A DNA stretch of 64,000 nt from Bacteroidia bacterium (GTDB lineage Bacteria; Bacteroidota; Bacteroidia; Chitinophagales; Saprospiraceae), in contig JAUHXV010000001.1 of assembly GCA_030426765.1 (NCBI GenBank), forward strand, positions 62,001 to 126,000, given 5' to 3'. A program made the position numbers and the translations under genes. This document shows positions 521-50,195 of the stretch, piece after piece. How positions within the stretch are numbered: the stretch's first letter is position 1; each line of letters begins with the position of its first letter. The notes under the pieces are model-generated. The model did not search any database. It saw only the letters and a program-made list of their open reading frames with translations, and was not told where the DNA came from.

Positions 521-804
521 TGTTACTTTTTTCCTTGCCATGTAGATGATAATTCTACAGGGACGTGTCCTGAAACCAACCGTGTTGCAGGACACGAAAA
601 AGTAACCAAAAAGTCTATGAATTACTTGTTCTTTTTTTCCGGAAAAAAGAACCAAAAACCTCGTCGCTGTAAAAACTCGCTTTCGCCTCACAACATTTTT
701 TAGGGTTTATTGCTTCCATTTGCATCCGTTTTCACACCCCCTTGTATTTCTGCTTGCGAACAGAAATACAAGCTGTTAAGGGTGCTCAAACAATTTACAG
801 CGAC
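521..804 (+). repeat. Dispersed structured element, copy 1 (composite)
   Basis: Non-coding element in the convergent gap between exbD and the carboxypeptidase gene. The parts in order are: a long hairpin whose foot is GTTACTTTTT (522-531) and AAAAAGTAAC (597-606), with an inner 8-bp stem GTGTCCTG/CAGGACAC (565-572/588-595); a second palindrome, GTTC plus T-run then A-run plus GAAC, at 628-652; then CAAAAACCTC; an 11-nt arm at 663-673; conserved AACTC; a 12-bp hairpin at 741-772 with loop CTTGCGAA; TCAAACAA; and an 11-nt arm at 794-804 that perfectly pairs with 663-673. The strand is given relative to copies 2 and 3, which lie the same way; the transcribed strand is unknown. The 38 nt at 625-662 are identical to copy 3. 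Confidence 0.8.
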
Positions 805-17703: not shown

Positions 17704-20700
17704 ATGAAAACACTGACACTTATATTCCTGGGGCTATGTTTATGCCAGGCAATAGCGACCTGTCAGGATGGTTGTAGTGAGACGTACTTCAAAATATTTG
17801 GACTGCCAGGAGAAGATGAGCAGGGGTATAGTCTTGCGACATCACTGGATGAACAATCCGTGTATGTTGGTGCCGGTAAAAACGGAGAAGCCATTATTCT
17901 GAAGATTTCATCGCTTGGAGTGGTAGAATGGGTAAGATCATTTGATATCGTTCCGAATGAATCGGATATCATTTTCAAAATACTGGTAGATAGTGAAGGG
18001 ATGATCGGGGTTTCAGGAATTTCTGGTTCACAGAATGGAGGAGGTACCGTCTTTGTGTTCCGATACAACCCTTTTAATAATACCGTACTGTGGGCAAAAG
18101 AGTTAATCAGTACGAGTGATAATTTTAACTTGGGAATGATTGAAAAAGGATCCGGTGGGAATTATCTGGTGATAAATAACCCATCTGCCCCCAATGTAAC
18201 TGAATTAGTTGAGTTGAATCGAACCACTGGAGATATTGTCCCTTCATTCTCACGACACTATGATTTAGGTTCTTCCGAAACAATTTACGATATGGTATTT
18301 GAGGGAGGGAGCCTGTATGCTTCTGCACGATTTTCTGATGGAGGAGGTCCAGCGCAGATGCGAAACACCCTTCTAAAACTCAATCCATCGAATGGCGATG
18401 TTGACTGGATGAAACTGGGGCATAAACCAGCAGCTCAACCATGCAGGCTTTATGGGATTGATCTGGTTGTGGCGCAGAATGATATATTCTCTCTTTGTCT
18501 TGGCGATGAAACAGGAACCAACCTAAGTTCAGATACTGAAGTCTATGTACAAAGAACTAATCTGAATGGAACATTACAATGGCTTAAAAAATATCAACTT
18601 CCTGGTAACAATAACTGGTTTGATGAAATCATAGAATCCAGTGGGGGGCTTGTCATACTTGGAAGAAACCGGGTATCGCCCAGCGATTTGTTCTTGTTTA
18701 AAATTGACTTCAACGGCAATGTACAGTGGGCAAAGAAATTCGATTATGCCACTAACGACAATGCTGCATTTCTGGGCGGCATTCAATCGCAATTAATTGA
18801 GGCGGACAATCATTTATATTTTACTGCGATCGCACAGGAGGGGAGCAATAATGACATAATACTGGGTAAAACAGATTTGGATGGTGAAATTGAAGGAGAA
18901 TGTGCCGAATCCATGGATATCAGTATTCCTGTGACAGAAATCAGCAATCCGGTTTTTTATGACCAAACGCCTATCATTACAGACTATGAACCACAGGTCA
19001 TTACACACGATGTAGTGGAAGGTGTAGACGTTTCTCTTGAAAGTAATACAATCTGCTCTTTGCCTATCATCATCGAAACCGACCTAAGTGTTTCCATATG
19101 CGAAGGACAAATGTTTGAGGGGTATTCAGATGAAGGATTTTACATAGATACTTTTAGCAGTGTACTCGGTTGTGATAGCATCAGGTCTTTGGATCTGCAA
19201 CTACTTCCTCCTACACAAACTCAAATGCAAATCACCATATGTGAGGGCGAGCAATTTGAAGGGTACAGTATGACAGGTATTTACTTGGACACTTTTACCA
19301 CTATGGATGGATGTGACAGTATCCGGTCACTTGACCTTCAGGTAAATGAAGCCGTCATTTCAAATGTTTTTGCAGAGATATGTCCTCAGGAAATCTTTGA
19401 AGGCTATAGTGAAGAGGGAATCTACCAGGATACATTTCCGGGCCAGAATGGTTGCGACAGTATTCGCATTTTGCAATTAACCGTGCTTGAAGAAGTTATG
19501 ATGGACCTTGATATAACTATTTGCTTTGGAGAAGAATATGAAGGGTATACTGAGGAAGGGATCTATCAGGATACCTTCCTCACGCAACAAGGGTGTGATA
19601 GTATCAGAATATTAAATCTGGATGTCGGTGAATTCATTCTGAGCAGCATTGAAATTGAACTTTGCGAAGGAGAAACGTATGAGGGCTATAGTGATGAGGG
19701 TATGTATCAGGATACTTTCCAAACGCAAAGAGGATGTGATAGTATCAGGCTATTGACCCTAATAATACAGGAAGAAGTGCAGGAAACGCTGGATGTCGAC
19801 ATTTGTGAAGGGGATAGTTATGAAGGATATTCTCAAACAGGAACATATCAGGATACCTTCCAGACGCAGCAAGGCTGCGATAGCATCAGAATTTTGAATT
19901 TATTCATTCAACCACCTGTTTCTTCTTTCATTGATATAGGCATTTGTGAGGGTTCGGAATATGAGGGCTATATGGAAGAGGGTATCTATCAGGACACCTT
20001 TCAAACGCAAGATGGTTGCGATAGCATCCGCATACTTACGCTCACCATTACGGATACTGTCTATACAAATATTGAGGTAGAAATCTGTGAAGGCGAGAGC
20101 TATGAAGGGTTTAATACATCAGGTATTTATCAGGATATCTTTCAGACACAACAGGGTTGTGACAGTATAAGGGTGCTTGATTTAAGTGTAATTAATACCA
20201 TGATGTTCAATCAGGATGTGGTCATCTGCCCTGGCTCTACTTATGAAGGGTATGATTCACCGGGAACGTATCAGGATACCTTTCAAACGCAACAAGGGTG
20301 TGATAGTATCAGGGTGCTCAATTTAGCGGTCTCGAATACGATCATGAGTAACCAGGATGTAGTCATTTGCCAGGGCTCCATGTATGAAGGGTATGATTCA
20401 CCCGGAACGTATCAGGACACCTTTCAAACTCAACAAGGGTGTGATAGTATCAGGGTACTCAATTTAGCGGTCTCGAATACGATCATGAGTAACCAGGATG
20501 TAGTCATTTGCCAAGGCTCCATGTATGAAGGGTATGACTCTTCCGGAGTGTATCAGGACACCTTTCAAACACAAAATGGCTGCGACAGTATTAGAATGCT
20601 CAATCTAACGGTCGCTGATATCATTGTGTCAAATCTGGACAAAGTAATCTGTCAGGGTTCTTCTTATGAAGGCTATTCTATGCCAGGAATGTACCAGGAT

Positions 20701-21879
20701 ACTTTTCAGACAGCGGAAGGCTGCGACAGTATTAGAATCCTTCAATTAGATGTAGCCGATGAGGTTTTTGAAAGTCTCGATATCCGGATCTGTGAAGGAG
20801 AGATGTACGAAGGTTACAGTCAGGAAGGCATATATGAAGATACTTTTCAAACACCATCCGGCTGTGATAGTGTTCGTTTGTTGAATTTAATGGTGGAGAG
20901 TACTTCGACATCTTTTATTGCCATAGTGTTATGTCAGGGTTCTTCTTATGAGGGTTACACCATGCCCGGAATGTATCAGGATACTTTCCAAACAGTTAAT
21001 GGCTGCGATAGTATCAGAACGCTGATGCTTGAAGTGGCTGACACCCTATTTACTTCGATGACGGTTTCATTGTGCCAGGGTGAATCCTATGAAGGCTACT
21101 CGATGGAAGGGATTTATCAGGACACCTTTCAGACGATCAATGGGTGTGATAGTATAAGGAGGTTAGTCTTATCTATAGATGATTTCATTTCTTCGATGAT
21201 CACTGCTCAGATTTGTCAAGGCATGGCTTATGAAGATTATTTTTCTTCAGGGATTTATCAGGACACCTTTCAAACGATCGATGGGTGTGACAGCATTCGC
21301 GTATTGGACCTGTTGGTATTGATTGCTGACATCACTGATATTGATGTGGCCCTTTGTGAAGGTGAATCCTATGAAGGATATTTTGAAGAAGGAATATACC
21401 AGGATACTTTTCAAAATCTGGCAGGTTGTGATAGTGTAAGAAACCTGGTAATCACCACCATGCCTCCCACCACCACCTATGTAGAAGCAAGCCATTGCGA
21501 CGATAGTTACTATGGATACCACCACGCCGGAGTATATATTGACACCTTTACAAACACTATGGGCTGCGATAGTATCAGGACGTTAAACCTGACAGGCATC
21601 AATGTCTATGTTCCAAATGTTTTCTCACCAAACAACGATGGCGTAAACGATCTGTTTGAAATCAGCGTCTTTCCGGAAACGTTTGACAAGAACCCTTCTT
21701 TTACCATTTTTGATCGGTTTGGGGACATGGTGTTTTTTGCTGAGGAATGGCCTGTGATTTGGGATGGGAGGAGTAAAAATGGTGAGTTCTACAACCCAGG
21801 CGTATTCACGTATATCCTTAGTTACTTTTGTAATAACAAACAAATCAACGAAAAAGGAGATATTACTTTGATCAGATAA
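17704..21879 (+). CDS. Giant repeat surface protein with gliding-motility/T9SS C-terminal domain
   Basis: 1391 residues. Signal peptide at about 1-18. Residues 20-450 form a beta-propeller-like region with repeated strand/turn motifs (GEAIILKISSLGVVEWVRSF; LFLFKIDFNGNVQWAKKF). Residues 461-1300 are 18 tandem 47-residue units, consensus ICEGxSYEGYxxxGxYQDTFQTxxGCDSIRxLxL, each with two cysteines. Residues 1300-1391 are the CHU_C / gliding-motility-associated domain (VPNVFSPNNDGVNDLF... FDRFGDMVF... WDGRSKNGEF...), a T9SS sorting signal. Likely a cell-surface adhesin or stalk. It stops 3 bp before the convergent glycosyltransferase gene. Confidence 0.88.
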   Translation: MKTLTLIFLGLCLCQAIATCQDGCSETYFKIFGLPGEDEQGYSLATSLDEQSVYVGAGKNGEAIILKISSLGVVEWVRSFDIVPNESDIIFKILVDSEGMIGVSGISGSQNGGGTVFVFRYNPFNNTVLWAKELISTSDNFNLGMIEKGSGGNYLVINNPSAPNVTELVELNRTTGDIVPSFSRHYDLGSSETIYDMVFEGGSLYASARFSDGGGPAQMRNTLLKLNPSNGDVDWMKLGHKPAAQPCRLYGIDLVVAQNDIFSLCLGDETGTNLSSDTEVYVQRTNLNGTLQWLKKYQLPGNNNWFDEIIESSGGLVILGRNRVSPSDLFLFKIDFNGNVQWAKKFDYATNDNAAFLGGIQSQLIEADNHLYFTAIAQEGSNNDIILGKTDLDGEIEGECAESMDISIPVTEISNPVFYDQTPIITDYEPQVITHDVVEGVDVSLESNTICSLPIIIETDLSVSICEGQMFEGYSDEGFYIDTFSSVLGCDSIRSLDLQLLPPTQTQMQITICEGEQFEGYSMTGIYLDTFTTMDGCDSIRSLDLQVNEAVISNVFAEICPQEIFEGYSEEGIYQDTFPGQNGCDSIRILQLTVLEEVMMDLDITICFGEEYEGYTEEGIYQDTFLTQQGCDSIRILNLDVGEFILSSIEIELCEGETYEGYSDEGMYQDTFQTQRGCDSIRLLTLIIQEEVQETLDVDICEGDSYEGYSQTGTYQDTFQTQQGCDSIRILNLFIQPPVSSFIDIGICEGSEYEGYMEEGIYQDTFQTQDGCDSIRILTLTITDTVYTNIEVEICEGESYEGFNTSGIYQDIFQTQQGCDSIRVLDLSVINTMMFNQDVVICPGSTYEGYDSPGTYQDTFQTQQGCDSIRVLNLAVSNTIMSNQDVVICQGSMYEGYDSPGTYQDTFQTQQGCDSIRVLNLAVSNTIMSNQDVVICQGSMYEGYDSSGVYQDTFQTQNGCDSIRMLNLTVADIIVSNLDKVICQGSSYEGYSMPGMYQDTFQTAEGCDSIRILQLDVADEVFESLDIRICEGEMYEGYSQEGIYEDTFQTPSGCDSVRLLNLMVESTSTSFIAIVLCQGSSYEGYTMPGMYQDTFQTVNGCDSIRTLMLEVADTLFTSMTVSLCQGESYEGYSMEGIYQDTFQTINGCDSIRRLVLSIDDFISSMITAQICQGMAYEDYFSSGIYQDTFQTIDGCDSIRVLDLLVLIADITDIDVALCEGESYEGYFEEGIYQDTFQNLAGCDSVRNLVITTMPPTTTYVEASHCDDSYYGYHHAGVYIDTFTNTMGCDSIRTLNLTGINVYVPNVFSPNNDGVNDLFEISVFPETFDKNPSFTIFDRFGDMVFFAEEWPVIWDGRSKNGEFYNPGVFTYILSYFCNNKQINEKGDITLIR
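19084..21600 (+). repeat. 18-unit in-frame tandem repeat of 141 bp
   Basis: Units start every 141 bp exactly from 19084 (the 18th at 21481, one codon shorter). Units 9-11 (from 20212, 20353 and 20494) are nearly identical at the DNA level, while the rest have diverged, which points to recent unit duplication by unequal recombination. Confidence 0.9.
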
Positions 21880-29462: not shown

Positions 29463-29877
29463 AAGTTAACTACGAATTACGAATTACGTTTTTTCTTAGT
29501 TTTGTTTTTGCCTTGTGTAGGTCCAAAATTTTCAAGTATTTAAAATCATCCTGATTGGGAGATTTGTTACTTTTTTCACATGTCCTGAAACCGAAAGTGT
29601 TTCAGGATTGCCATCCTGCAATATTTTAATTGCAGGACACAAAAAAGTAACCAAAAAGTCTAGTGATTCAAAAAACTCACTTTTAGGTCCGTTCAATTTT
29701 TAGCATTTTGGTATGCTGTCTCGCTATCTCGGTTTTCATAGTCCACCTTTTTTCTCTTGCGGACGAAAAAAGATGGCCGCCGGAGCGTTCAAACAGTTTT
29801 GAATCACAAAATGATTTTACCTATTCTCTCTGAAATTACTTAAGCGAGTGATTCTATTTAATATTGGCTTGAAGTTG
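29463..29877. other. 415-bp convergent gap holding repeat copy 2
   Basis: No gene. Contains ACGAATTACGAATTACG just after the stop (29472-29488) and structured element copy 2; the remainder is AT-rich with nothing else recognisable. Confidence 0.7.
29563..29807 (+). repeat. Dispersed structured element, copy 2
   Basis: GTTACTTTTTT (29566-29576) pairs with AAAAAAGTAAC (29641-29651) around two inner stems (TCCTGAAAC/GTTTCAGGA and TCCTGCAAT/ATTGCAGGA). Then CAAAAAGTCTA, an 11-nt arm GTGATTCAAAA at 29663-29673, AACTC, an inner hairpin (29743-29754 with 29765-29776, one mismatch) with loop TCTTGCGGAC, TTCAAACAG, and the matching arm TTTTGAATCAC at 29797-29807. Spacing agrees with copies 1 and 3 within a few nucleotides. 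It ends 70 bp before the stop of the oxidoreductase gene. Confidence 0.8.
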
Positions 29878-43185: not shown

Positions 43186-46100
43186 TTACAAAAGCGGACC
43201 TAACCATCGCTCCATTTCAGGCAGGGACATCTTTTTGCGTTCTGCGTAGTCCGTGAGCTGATCGCGGTCAATGCCACTCACCGGAAAATACCGACTCGCA
43301 GGATGCGCAAAATACCATCCGCTGACACTGGCAGCCGGATGCATCGCCATGCTTTCGGTAAGGGAAATACCGGTGCCATTGGCTTTTTCGAGCAACGTAA
43401 AAAGGATTTCTTTTTCCGTATGATCGGGACATGCCGGATAGCCGGGGGCGGGACGAATACCCCGATATTTTTCATCGATCAATGCTTCATTATCTAAGCC
43501 TTCATCCGGGACATACCCCCACCATTCTGTCCGCATACGCTCATGCATTCGCTCGGCAAAGGCTTCTGCCAGGCGATCCGCTAATGCTTTGAGCATAATG
43601 GCTTCGTAATCGTTGTGCGTCTTCTGAAACTCCGCCACTTTTTGTTCGATATCGACGCCGGCCGTTACAGCAAACCCACCGATATAATCTTTCAACCCGC
43701 TTTCCACCGGAGCAATGAAATCCGATAAACAATAGTTTGGCTTCCCCGGGGCTTTCTCCACCTGCTGACGCAAATGATGGAGCCGGGTCAATTCCGTTTG
43801 GCGACTATCATCTGTATACACGATAATATCGTCACCCCTGCTGTTTGCCGGAAACAACCCGATCGCCGCATTTGCGATCAGCCACTTTTCCTTCACAATC
43901 TGATCGAGCATTGCCTGTGCATCGTCGAACAATTTTTTTGCTTCTTTGCCGACTACTTCATCCTCAAGGATAGCCGGATACTTTCCGGCCAGCTGCCAGC
44001 TTTGAAAAAAGGGCGTCCAGTCAATGTAGTTTCTGAGTTCAGAAAGATCGTATCCCAACAGAGACCACACACCGGTTTTGTTGGGTGCAGGGGGTGTATA
44101 ATCCGACCAATTTATTTGAAACTTGTTTTCTCTGGCTTCGGGCAAAGGCAGGTATTTCTTTTTGTTTTTACCGGCTCGCGCAATGCGCATTTGTTCGTAG
44201 TTGTCCCGAATCTCTTTTAAAAAGTCCGCGCGTTTTTCTTTGTCATCCGAAAGCAATTGCGAAGCCACGCCTACGGCTTTGGAAGCATCCAGCACATGGA
44301 CTACCGGGCCTTTGTTGTACTTCGGCTCCACTTTCAGCGCAGTATGTAATCTTGATGTTGTCGCTCCCCCGATCATAAGGGGCAGAACAAATCCTTCGCG
44401 TTCCATCTCTGCGGCAACGTGTACCATTTCGTCCAGTGAAGGTGTGATCAATCCACTCAGTCCGATGATATCCACCTGCTCTTCTCTTGCTGTTTTTAAA
44501 ATCTTATCTGCCGGCACCATCACGCCGAGATCCACGATGTCGTAGTTGTTACACGCGAGTACAACACCCACGATGTTTTTACCTATATCATGGACATCGC
44601 CTTTGACGGTAGCCATGAGGATTTTCCCTTTTACTTTGGCATCGCCGAGTTGTTTGTCTGCTTCCAGGAAAGGCGTGAGATAGGCCACCGCCATTTTCAT
44701 GACGCGGGCGCTTTTCACCACCTGTGGAAGAAACATTTTTCCTGTGCCGAAGAGTTCACCGACTACATTCATTCCATCCATCAGTGGTCCTTCGATCACC
44801 TCGAGCGGGCGTGCGTATTGCTGACGCGCTTCTTCTGTGTCGGCTTCGATGTATTCGGTGATCCCTTTGACCAGGGCATGTTTTAAACGCTCTTGCACGG
44901 TGTCGTTACGCCATGCCTGATCGCGCTGTACGGTTTTACCGGAGGACTTCACTTCAGTGGCATAGGTGGTGAGGCTTTCTGTGGCATCCGGATGACGGTT
45001 GAAAAGAACATCCTCCACTTTTTGCAAAAGCTCCTTGTCGATCTCTTCATACACTTCGATCATCCCGGCATTGACGATCCCCATATCCATGCCGGCGCGA
45101 ATAGCATGGTACAAAAATGCGGCATGCATTGCTTCCCGGACGGCATTGTTGCCGCGATAGGAAAATGAAATATTACTTACACCACCACTGACTTTTGCAC
45201 CGGGACAAAGTTGTTTGATTTGTCGCGTCGCTTCAATAAAATTGATCGCATAGGTGTTGTGTTCTTCAATACCCGTTCCGATAGCAAAAATATTGGGGTC
45301 GAAGATGATGTCCTGGGGTGGAAAACCTAATTCGATTGTAAGGATTCGATATGCGCGTTGGCAAATCTCAACTTTCCGTTCGATGGTATCCGCTTGTCCT
45401 TCTTCATCAAACGCCATGACGACCACTGCTGCGCCATATTTTCTAACCAACTTTGCCTGGTGTATGAAAACTTCTTCACCTTCCTTCAGTGAAATACTGT
45501 TGACGATACATTTCCCCTGAACGCACTGAAGACCGGCTTCGATGATCTCCCATTTCGATGAATCGATCATAAACGGAAGCTTTGCAATATCAGGTTCAGA
45601 ACCCATCAGATTAAGAAACTCCACCATCACAGCTTTGGAATCCAGCAGCCCTTCATCCATGTTGATATCCAGGATCTGTGCGCCACTTTCTGCTTGTTGC
45701 GCAGCGACGCTTAGCGCTTCTGCATATTTTTCTTCGCGTATCAGGCGGGCAAATTTCGCCGATCCTGTCACGTTGGTTCGCTCGCCAATATTGACAAAAT
45801 TGCTGTCGGGGCGAATCGTCAGCGGTTCCAGTCCACTGAGCTGCGTGTATGGATTCGCTTTCGGGATCACACGTGGAGGTAGCGTGGAAACAGCTTCGGC
45901 GATCGCCTGGATGTGATCCGGTGTAGTCCCGCAACATCCGCCCGTGATATTGAAAAAGCCACTTTGTCCAAACTCACCAAGGAGTTCTTTCATGGCTTCC
46001 GGAGTCTGATCGTAACCTCCCAGTTCGTTAGGCAGGCCTGCATTGGGAAAAACGATCAGCGGCACATTGGCAATCTGGGAAAGCTCTTCGACATAAGGAC

Positions 46101-46899
46101 GCATTTCTGCGGCTCCGAGCGCGCAGTTGATCCCTACGCAGAACAGCGGTGCATGTGAAATAGAAATCCAGAAGGCTTCAATCGTCTGCCCGGAAAGCGT
46201 GCGACCACTGGCATCGGTGATCGTCCCTGAGACGCCGACCAGTATATCAGCATTTGTTTCCTCTATAAGCGTCGTAATGCCAAACAGTGCAGCTTTGCAG
46301 TTAAGTGTGTCAAAGACAGTTTCGATGAGCAGAAGATCCACACCCCCATCGATCAACCCGCGGGCTTGTTCGGTGTAGGCATCCGCAAGTTCTTTGAAAG
46401 TCGTCGCGCGAAATCCGGGTTTGTTGACGTCCGGCGACATCGAAGCGGTGCGGTTGGTCGGTCCTATTGACCCAACGACAAATCGTGGTTTGCCGGAATC
46501 TTTTGTGGAAAATTCATCCGCTACTTTGCGTGCGATTTTAGCGGCTGCCAGGTTGATTTGGTATACGTGGTCTTCGGTGCCGTAGTCTGCCTGGCTGATG
46601 GCATTGGCGTTAAAGGTATTCGTTTCCACCATATCTGCCCCGGCCAGAAAATAATCGCGATGTACTTGTTCGACGACGTCCGGCCTTGTGAGATTCAGGA
46701 GGTCGTGATTTCCTTTCAGATCCGATGGCCAATCAGCGAATTCCTTACCGCGATAATCTGACTCCGTTAGTTGGTAGCGTTGCAACATCGTGCCCATGGC
46801 GCCGTCCAGCACCAGGATACGCTTTTTGACTTCCTCCTGTAGGAGGGTTGTACGCGACACTGTCTTTTGATGTGCTTCAATCATAACCTGCTTACGCAT
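43186..46899 (-). CDS. metH: Cobalamin-dependent methionine synthase
   Basis: 1237 residues, the usual full length. Domains in order: homocysteine-binding barrel (about 25-340) with zinc cysteines C259, C322 and C323 ([10 protein letters not shown]); methyltetrahydrofolate-binding barrel (about 365-640); B12-binding cap and Rossmann domain (about 660-900) with H770 in D-VHDIGKN, the lower axial ligand of cobalt; SAM-dependent activation domain (about 915-1230). It makes methionine from homocysteine and needs vitamin B12. Transcription starts at a strong promoter (47076-47106) and passes a SAM-type riboswitch (46980-47065), so it should be shut off when SAM is plentiful. Confidence 0.97.
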
Positions 46900-46979
46900 T
46901 TGTGGTTTGGCATCAGGAGATCATGACGAGACAATGGCATACAGGTATAACGGCGGGATAATGTGAACATACGTTTGAT

Positions 46980-47065
46980 CCGCGTGGACCCGCATCTGCC
47001 GGGCACCGTTCCGTTCACCTGGTCGGTTGCCGCCCCGTGCATCGCACAGGATCTCTTGATGCAAG
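46980..47065 (-). ncRNA. SAM riboswitch (SAM-I/SAM-IV clan) upstream of metH
   Basis: Read on the minus strand: P1 5' strand GCATC (47058-47062), AAGAG, P2 stem CCTGTGC/GCACGGG with a GAT loop, conserved GGCAACC, a third arm closing GACC...GGTGCC, and P1 3' strand GATGC (46992-46996). The ATCAAGAG, GGCAACC and GGTGCC blocks are those of the SAM-I/SAM-IV core; the short P2 and the layout look closer to SAM-IV or SAM-I/IV variants. It lies between the metH promoter and the metH start about 80 nt downstream. The subclass is not certain. Confidence 0.72.
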
Positions 47066-47075
47066 AAATATGAAG

Positions 47076-47160: not shown

Positions 47161-48018
47161 TTAACGGAAGAGAAGAGAGTTTGCCGAAGATTCGACATCA
47201 AGTCTTATGTCCTATGTCTTGTGTCTAACATCTGACAAAGTGTGTAACTGTGCAAGCGGAGAAATTAAACTGCGTCTTTGCGCCTTTGCGTGAGATAAAA
47301 GAGGGCAGAACGGATGCCGAGTAGACAGAATTAAGTTTTAGGGTTTTATTTCTGGGTAGAAAAGAGGAAGAGGCGGAAGAGGCGGAAAAGCTAGCGATGT
47401 GTCGGGGTTAACAGCCAACGGAAATATTCCGAAATAGGTAACTTAAAATAGAATCATCCACAAATTTTAGGTCTTGTGACTATCGTCTTTTGTCTGGCCA
47501 ATTTTATAACTGTGAATGTGGAGAAATTAAACTGCGTCTTCGCGCCTTTGCGTGAGATAAAAGAGGGCAGAACGGATGCCGAGTAGACAGAATTAAGTTT
47601 TAGGGTTTTATTTCTGGGTAGAAAAGAGGAAGAGGCGGAAAAGAGAAAGAGCTGGAAAGACGGAAGGGCGTCGGATTTTTGGGGTTAACGGAAGAGAAGA
47701 GAGTTTGCCGAAGATTCGACATCAAGTCTTATGTCTGAAGTCTTGTGTCTGGAATCTGGCAAAGTGTGTAACTGTGCAAGCGGAGAAACTAAACTGCGTC
47801 TTAGCGCCTTTGCGTGAGATAAAAGAGGGCAGAAAGGATTCCGAGTAGACAGAATTAAGTTTTAGGGTTTTATTTCTGGGTAGAAAAGAGGAAGGGGCGG
47901 AAAAGAGAAAGAGCTGGAAAGACGGAAGGGCGTCGGATTTTTGGGGTTAACGGAAGAGAAGAGAGTTTGCCGAAGATTCGACATCAAGTCTTATGTCCTA
48001 TGTCTTGTGTCTAACATC
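47161..48018. repeat. 262-bp tandem array, about 3.3 units
   Basis: Units start at 47161, about 47423 (5' part diverged), 47685 and 47947 (partial), with an exact 262-bp period checked on several words (TGCGTC at 47271, 47533 and 47795; TTAACGG at 47161, 47685 and 47947). Units contain CTTTGCGCCTTTGCGTGAGA, a word widespread in Bacteroidota intergenic DNA, and a degenerate tract of GTCTTATGTCCTATGTC type. No coding frame is kept across units. Confidence 0.88.
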
Positions 48019-49720: not shown

Positions 49721-50195
49721 TATTTCTTCTATTATAGAAATTGTTTTAGGGGTTCGGGTATATCACAACTAGTCTTTTTACAATAGAGTGGATATTCAAA
49801 TTAACTTATTTCTTCAGCTTGAAACAACCTTGTTCTTTTTTTCCGGAAAAAAGAACCAAAAACCTCGTCGCCCTTTAAACTCCCCTTGAGTTTTGTTCGT
49901 TGGTTAATTTTTTTGCTTGCTTATTGATTATAACATTTCGCCCTACTTTTCCCTCTTGCGGACGGGAAAAGCAGGCTGCCGGAATGGTCAAACAGTAAAG
50001 GGCGACCAGATTCTTCTGAATCAATTTGAATGTCTGGGATTTCAGCGGATTTTGAGAACGTTGTCCTTAAAAATGTTTAAGCTGTGATGTGATACCACGA
50101 GCACTTTACTTCATACCATTCCTACCTCAACAAACCCTTTAGCCCTTAGCTCTTAGCTCCACGCCCCATGCCCCATGCCCCATGCTCCAAGCTTC
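49721..50195. other. 475-bp gap holding repeat copy 3 and a CCCCATG microsatellite
   Basis: Contains structured element copy 3, an AT-rich stretch, TTAGCTC words and GCCCCAT units (50162-50184) ending next to the alanine dehydrogenase stop. No gene. Confidence 0.7.
49829..50006 (+). repeat. Dispersed structured element, copy 3
   Basis: Palindrome GTTC plus T-run/A-run plus GAAC (49832-49856) followed by CAAAAACCTC; 49829-49866 equals copy 1 over 38 nt. The 11-nt arm GTCGCCCTTTA (49867-49877) is followed by AACTC; the inner hairpin is 49942-49953 with 49964-49975 (one mismatch), loop TCTTGCGGAC; then GTCAAACAG and the partner arm TAAAGGGCGAC (49996-50006). It lacks the GTTAC-type first hairpin of copies 1 and 2. 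Confidence 0.8.

What the first reader, a model, noticed from the sequence alone, without database searches (positions are those of the whole stretch)
521..804. Dispersed element whose 11-nt outer arms covary across three copies
In all three copies (663-673/794-804; 29663-29673/29797-29807; 49867-49877/49996-50006) an 11-nt arm is followed by invariant AACTC, and about 120 nt later invariant TCAAACA is followed by its perfect reverse complement. The arms differ between copies: 4 of 11 positions between copies 1 and 3, 7 of 11 between copies 2 and 3. Pairing is 11 of 11 each time. Ordinary transposon ends would be the same sequence in every copy. Pairing kept while sequence changes means the helix, not the sequence, is maintained, in RNA or single-stranded DNA. 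I cannot name a known family for it.
Basis: seen in the sequence. Interest (0 to 1): 0.85.

Follow-up and report, generated by a model that had tools for sequence, protein, structure and literature searches.

The report
Dispersed foldback repeat with covarying helices
A roughly 150-base non-coding repeat, scattered in at least 50 copies between the genes of an uncultured Saprospiraceae-like bacterium, keeps its folded shape while its sequence changes, which points to a previously undescribed family of mobile foldback elements whose shape is what gets recognised.

Summary
All three window copies have perfectly paired 11-nt arms of different sequence. A covariance model finds 58 copies in this draft genome (about 48 strong and full-length), at least 21 in a second species of the genus, and one or two each in two other draft genomes annotated as or placed near Saprospiraceae. 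Covariation is strong: against structure-free simulations on the copies' own tree, 9 of the 10 best-scoring column pairs out of 10,153 lie in the two helices. Three further features were found. (1) An inner hairpin covaries as well. (2) A further base pair flanks the conserved AACTC/TCAAACA loop and covaries. Copies are strongly enriched between convergent genes and are absent at one syntenic site in the sister species. There is no Rfam match, no reverse transcriptase, no TnpB and no integron integrase, and none of the three Y1 transposases is flanked by the element. Best reading: a new REP/MITE-like non-autonomous mobile foldback family, recognised as folded single-stranded DNA (about 0.5) or as RNA (about 0.27). 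The mobilising enzyme is unknown.

The parts
522..606 (-). Copy 1: first 5' hairpin H1 (GTTACTTTTTT...AAAAAGTAAC) with an expanded multi-hairpin tip
628..652 (-). Copy 1: second 5' hairpin H1b (GTTCTTTTTTTCCGGAAAAAAGAAC)
663..673 (-). Copy 1: outer arm of helix P1 (GTCGCTGTAAA on +)
674..680 (-). Copy 1: invariant AACTC (GAGTT on -) plus covarying G679 and C680, which pair with C785 and G784
741..772 (-). Copy 1: inner hairpin P2 (741-752 with 761-772), GCAA in its cap on the - strand
784..792 (-). Copy 1: G784, C785 and invariant TCAAACA (TGTTTGA on -)
794..804 (-). Copy 1: outer arm partner of helix P1
29566..29651 (-). Copy 2: 5' hairpin H1 with two nested hairpins at its tip
29663..29673 (-). 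Copy 2: outer arm of P1 (GTGATTCAAAA on +)
29743..29776 (-). Copy 2: inner hairpin P2 (29743-29754 with 29765-29776), one C.A on + = G.U on -
29797..29807 (-). Copy 2: outer arm partner of P1
49832..49856 (-). Copy 3: 5' hairpin H1b
49867..49877 (-). Copy 3: outer arm of P1 (GTCGCCCTTTA on +)
49942..49975 (-). Copy 3: inner hairpin P2 (49942-49953 with 49964-49975)
49996..50006 (-). Copy 3: outer arm partner of P1

Best explanation
A new family of non-autonomous, dispersed intergenic foldback elements of the same general kind as REP/REPIN, ERIC and bacterial MITEs. SHOWN: the unit is a 5' A/T-rich hairpin (H1) followed by an 11-bp closing helix (P1), an internal loop with invariant TGTTTGA/GAGTT on the minus strand, a covarying 2-bp helix, and a covarying inner hairpin (P2) usually capped by C(GNRA)G. 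Pairing is kept while sequence changes. The minus strand is the one whose folding is conserved. Copies sit between genes, mostly convergent ones, and at one syntenic site the sister species lacks the element. INFERRED: a trans-acting enzyme, not identified, recognises the folded minus strand when it is single-stranded (for example during replication) and moves or copies it. Only correctly folding copies propagate, so selection acts on the element's shape rather than on a fixed end sequence, and arm sequences drift by compensatory change into subfamilies. The most probable type of enzyme is an HuH/Y1-like hairpin-recognising nuclease that is absent from this assembly, or one of the Y1 proteins acting at a distance.
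For: 58 model matches in own genome and 21 in the congener, which was scored with stricter filters. Covariation score 0.622 against 0.157 in shuffles, 15 pairs with two-sided changes; 0.490 against 0.142 on 27 diverse copies read on the minus strand, with P1 99.7% and the 2-bp helix 100% paired. 9 of the 10 best covarying column pairs among 10,153 lie in the helices, 3 above every simulated structure-free alignment. Asymmetric mismatches: A.C versus G.T on + = 17:3 after clustering at 85%, p = 0.003 (weaker, 10:3, p = 0.09 at 70%); X-X' pair G-C 33, C-G 24, A-T 6, A.C 4. Minus strand folds slightly better, 48 of 75 copies, p = 6e-4. Convergent gaps 19 of 39 with element versus 34 of 230 without; divergent 4 of 39 versus 68 of 230; p = 3e-6. 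Element absent at the syntenic C22 site of the congener. No orientation bias relative to neighbouring genes, which argues against a cis-acting 3'-UTR role. No reverse transcriptase in the genome, which argues against an RNA-copy route.
Against: No partner gene found. The three Y1 genes have other hairpins beside them and none is flanked by this element. No target-site duplication was noticed by eye at unit ends, and boundaries are blurred by neighbouring palindromic modules. GNRA-like caps and tandem G.A are usual RNA motifs, so RNA remains possible. No replication-strand bias was seen, although GC skew is weak. The syntenic absence is one site, cannot tell gain from loss, and yields no clean empty site because intergenic DNA has diverged.
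Confidence: 0.5

Rival explanations
1. The minus strand is transcribed into a structured small RNA (P1, tandem G.A internal loop, P2 with GNRA cap, then H1 at the 3' side). The repeats are a mobile family of RNA genes or non-autonomous relics of an RNA-using mobile element.
For: G.U-type intermediates on one strand only; GNRA caps and invariant GA/GA tandem; minus strand folds slightly better; z-scores of -3.4 to -5.1 for the three window copies on the minus strand.
Against: No Rfam hit; no RT or TnpB; no convincing promoter near two of the copies; no orientation bias relative to neighbouring genes; host-level selection on 50 or more redundant copies is implausible. G.T wobbles, GNNA loops and tandem G.A also form in DNA (general knowledge).
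Confidence: 0.27
2. An ordinary MITE: a transposase binds double-stranded ends, and ends differ between subfamilies because different transposases moved them.
For: Arms are largely constant within a subfamily; neighbouring tails are subfamily-specific.
Against: Closely related copies (91-94% identical outside the helices) have different, compensated arms; the inner hairpin and X-X' pair covary as well; the wobble asymmetry picks one strand; the arms are not at the unit's left end.
Confidence: 0.12
3. Neutral hairpin homogenisation: template switching during replication keeps rewriting one arm as the complement of the other, so covariation needs no selection.
For: Published mechanism (PMC8794818). 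Some close relatives differ by G-C to C-G swaps or adjacent double changes with no wobble path.
Against: Arms are about 120 nt apart and the invariant single-stranded loop bases between the helices are conserved across genera; single-pair changes with wobble intermediates on one strand are common; the mechanism does not explain dispersal.
Confidence: 0.08

Closest known systems
REP / REPIN elements mobilised by RAYT (TnpA-REP) HuH nucleases, in particular the 'atypical secondary structures' reported beside subclass 2.6 RAYTs of Bacteroidetes (PMC6006769)
   Same: Dispersed, intergenic, foldback DNA; enriched away from promoters; family-specific; several arranged as inverted pairs.
   Different: About 150-190 nt with nested covarying helices rather than a 20-40 nt hairpin; no GT[AG]G foot as a rule; not adjacent to the genome's RAYT, beside which sits a different palindrome, ACAGTGTGCCACACCTAGGTGTGGCACACTGT, that recurs elsewhere.
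ERIC / RU-1 and other bacterial MITE-like intergenic repeats (PMC2229807, PMC2759123)
   Same: Similar size, intergenic, foldback, non-coding, nested insertions at fixed points.
   Different: Here the closing arms covary between copies; different phylum and no sequence relation claimed.
Stem-loop sequence families of bacterial genomes (PMC2267715)
   Same: Repeat families defined by a shared stem-loop.
   Different: A search of that paper's text for Bacteroidetes and for covariation terms found nothing.
Integron attC sites
   Same: Folded single strand (bottom strand) recognised by structure, with variable sequence and conserved unpaired bases (general knowledge).
   Different: No arrays or cassettes; no integron integrase above the curated cut-off.

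Membership tests
REP/REPIN of a RAYT | GT[AG]G tetranucleotide at the foot of the hairpin | tested here: not met
   Arms begin GTCG, GTCA or GTGA; only one listed arm type begins GTGG
REP/REPIN of a RAYT | Copies flank the cognate RAYT gene | tested here: not met
   No model match near the RAYT at C64:90226; it has another palindrome
REP/REPIN of a RAYT | Intergenic, avoiding promoters | tested here: met
   Convergent enrichment and divergent depletion, p = 3e-6
IS200/IS605 non-autonomous derivative | Related to ends flanking a Y1 tnpA in the genome | tested here: not met
   Both IS200-like Y1 genes have other hairpins nearby; the nearest element copies lie 1.5-2.5 kb away
MITE of a DDE transposase | Constant terminal inverted repeats | tested here: not met
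   About 20 different perfectly paired arms; arms not at the left end
MITE of a DDE transposase | Target-site duplication | tested here: inconclusive
   None noticed on reading the flanks, but unit boundaries are uncertain
Known Rfam RNA (HEARO, Flavo-1, Bacteroidales-1 and others) | Match at or near the family's threshold | tested here: not met
   cmscan of the window at gathering threshold and of five copy-bearing loci with E up to 5
Retron | Linked reverse transcriptase | tested here: not met
   No RVT_1 in own genome, 95% complete; not tested in the congener
OMEGA (TnpB) guide RNA | TnpB present in the genome | tested here: not met
   No PF07282 in own genome or congener; IscB/IsrB not searched
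Integron attC | Integron integrase IntI | tested here: not met
   Only sub-cut-off tyrosine recombinases, as in all control genomes

The most novel reading that the evidence does not exclude
A mobile family of structured RNA genes in Saprospiraceae: the minus strand of each repeat yields an RNA with a covarying closing helix, a conserved tandem-G.A internal loop and GNRA-capped hairpin, and this RNA (not the DNA) is what is recognised for spread.
Probability: 0.22. Interest if true: 0.85.

Novelty: new variant of a known kind. Interest (0 to 1): 0.6.

Why it matters
Mobile repeats are usually recognised by fixed end sequences. Here closely related copies have different, compensated arms, so the folded shape seems to be the recognised feature, as in attC sites or IS200-type ends, but in a family with no known enzyme. 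It gives a natural set of 60 or more variants for working out which bases are read and which are only paired. It also gives a clean case for separating selection on a fold from template-switch correction.

Tried and rejected
Y1/RAYT transposase as flanking partner: the three genes have other hairpins. Retron: no RT. OMEGA and integron: no TnpB or IntI. Rfam: nothing. Plasmids, phages and viral contigs: no match. Class-wide motif searches found only chance-level hits, so the family looks confined to one genus and a few relatives, though these were exact motif scans with limited reach. Cis-acting terminator or 3'-UTR role for one strand: no orientation bias. GC-skew orientation: no bias, weak test. 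A kink-turn was considered for the GA/GA loop, but the bases around it do not pair as a kink-turn requires, so it is not claimed.

Full report
OBSERVATION. The motif pair AAACTC..TCAAACA occurs 3 times in the window against 0.19 expected. A pattern search of the genome gave about 20 copies with paired arms among chance matches. A covariance model built from 17 of them finds 58 matches in the 3.98-Mb draft; about 48 are strong and full-length, the rest are degraded, interrupted or cut by contig ends. Among 60 related genomes, 21 matches lie in the one other species of the genus and one weak match in another genus of the family; a motif search shows a second copy there. An exact motif scan of GTDB genomes identifies the congener as MAG 'Bacteroidetes bacterium Ww118' and finds one further copy in a MAG named Saprospiraceae bacterium Go_SlAct_bin_199. 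In that third lineage and in the distant genus the arms pair too; the two copies of the distant genus, AAACAGAAAA and AAACATAAAA, differ by a compensated change.

COVARIATION. On 17 sequences the covariation score is 0.622 against 0.157 in shuffles; 15 of 20 pairs show changes on both sides, and sliding the partner by one column destroys it. On 83 matches it is 0.395 against 0.109. Because relatedness can mimic covariation, 60 structure-free alignments were simulated along the maximum-likelihood tree of 63 intact copies. Of 10,153 column pairs, 9 of the 10 best-scoring lie in the two helices, and three exceed every simulated value. The tenth joins the base after AACTC to the base before TCAAACA. 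Checking it directly shows an additional covarying base pair (G-C 33, C-G 24, A-T 6, A.C 4), followed by a C-G pair in 66 of 67 copies and A-T in one.

WHICH STRAND. Departures from Watson-Crick pairing are not random. On the + strand they are mostly A.C and rarely G.T (21 to 3 in 63 copies; 17 to 3 after merging copies alike at 85%, p = 0.003; 10 to 3, p = 0.09 at 70%). On the - strand these same pairs are G.U wobbles, the normal intermediate of helix evolution. GC, A.C and AT states of outer pair 4 all coexist among close relatives. In hairpin H1 the same holds: the C.A form was seen and G.T was not. The - strand also has an invariant GA/AG tandem in the internal loop in all 27 aligned copies, including the distant genus, mostly GNRA-type caps on P2, and slightly better folding energy (48 of 75 copies, p = 6e-4). 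Read on the - strand, 27 diverse copies pair in 99.7% (P1), 100% (2-bp helix) and 92% (P2) of cells. The functional strand is therefore probably the opposite of the one first reported.

ANATOMY AND SURROUNDINGS. Left of the arms every subfamily has hairpin H1, in the forms GTTAC/GTAAC, GTTCT/AGAAC or GATAC/GTATC, which also change in a compensated way. H1 may carry further hairpins at its tip. Many copies share a 3' tail, which differs between subfamilies. Other short palindromes (TCCCGCTGTACAGCGGGA, TCCGCCTGCGGCGGA) replace or interrupt parts of some copies. Copies often stand in inverted pairs. Intergenic gaps that hold a copy are 19 convergent, 16 co-directional and 4 divergent, against 34, 128 and 68 for gaps without one (p = 3e-6; ORF-based gene calls, so approximate). 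There is no preferred orientation relative to neighbouring genes or to GC skew. At the syntenic site of copy 2 in the congener both flanking genes are present but the element is not.

MECHANISM. Dispersal, absence at a syntenic site and nested or paired copies point to mobility. Selection to keep the fold in each of 50 or more redundant copies is hard to place at the level of the host, but follows naturally if only folding copies propagate. Since the genome has no reverse transcriptase, I favour recognition of folded single-stranded DNA by an enzyme acting in trans (inference). The three Y1 transposases of this genome have other hairpins beside them: for the RAYT the palindrome ACAGTGTGCCACACCTAGGTGTGGCACACTGT, which recurs elsewhere in the genome and is also present beside the syntenic RAYT of the congener, and CCTCCAC and GGGCTGAAGCCC type repeats for the IS200-like genes. 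None is flanked by this element, so the enzyme is not identified. A structured RNA is the main rival. Template-switch homogenisation of hairpins is published (PMC8794818) and may contribute, but it explains neither the one-strand wobble bias nor the conserved unpaired loop.

COMPARISON. No Rfam family matches, and no plasmid, phage or viral contig matches. It works like REP, ERIC or attC-type foldback DNA, but tested defining features of those families are not met, so it is not filed as a member of any of them.

Noticed in passing
L101:3267-3300 (G000:C64) and L215, L239, L247: The genome's RAYT (after guaB and mpg) is followed by a perfect palindrome ACAGTGTGCCACACCTAGGTGTGGCACACTGT that recurs at several other places; the congener has a RAYT and palindrome at the same syntenic place. 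Looks like a vertically kept REPtron.
   Followed up: partly
L041:1140-1440 (G000:C5): A single IS200-like tnpA without tnpB, syntenic in the congener beside an aminotransferase gene, followed in this genome by an array of CCTCCACTTGAAAGTGGAGG-type hairpins.
   Followed up: partly
L097:3950-4480 (G000:C133): A second IS200-like tnpA followed by repeats containing GGGCTGAAGCCC and AAAGCCATGAAATGGCG foldbacks.
   Followed up: no
loci L093, L094, L095, L097 (element ends) and flanks of many copies: Short perfect palindromes TCCCGCTGTACAGCGGGA, TCCGCCTGCGGCGGA and TCCCGATACATCGGGA replace or interrupt parts of the element at fixed junctions, as if palindromes substitute for each other.
   Followed up: partly
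window 47188-47973: Three tandem copies of a 262-nt non-coding unit, 70-88% alike, close to a SAM-I/IV riboswitch.
   Followed up: no
window 17704-21879: Long ORF (1391 aa) with about 16 repeats of 141 nt (47 aa).
   Followed up: no
window 46961-47067 (-): SAM-I/IV riboswitch upstream of a 1237-aa ORF at 43186-46899 on the minus strand.
   Followed up: no
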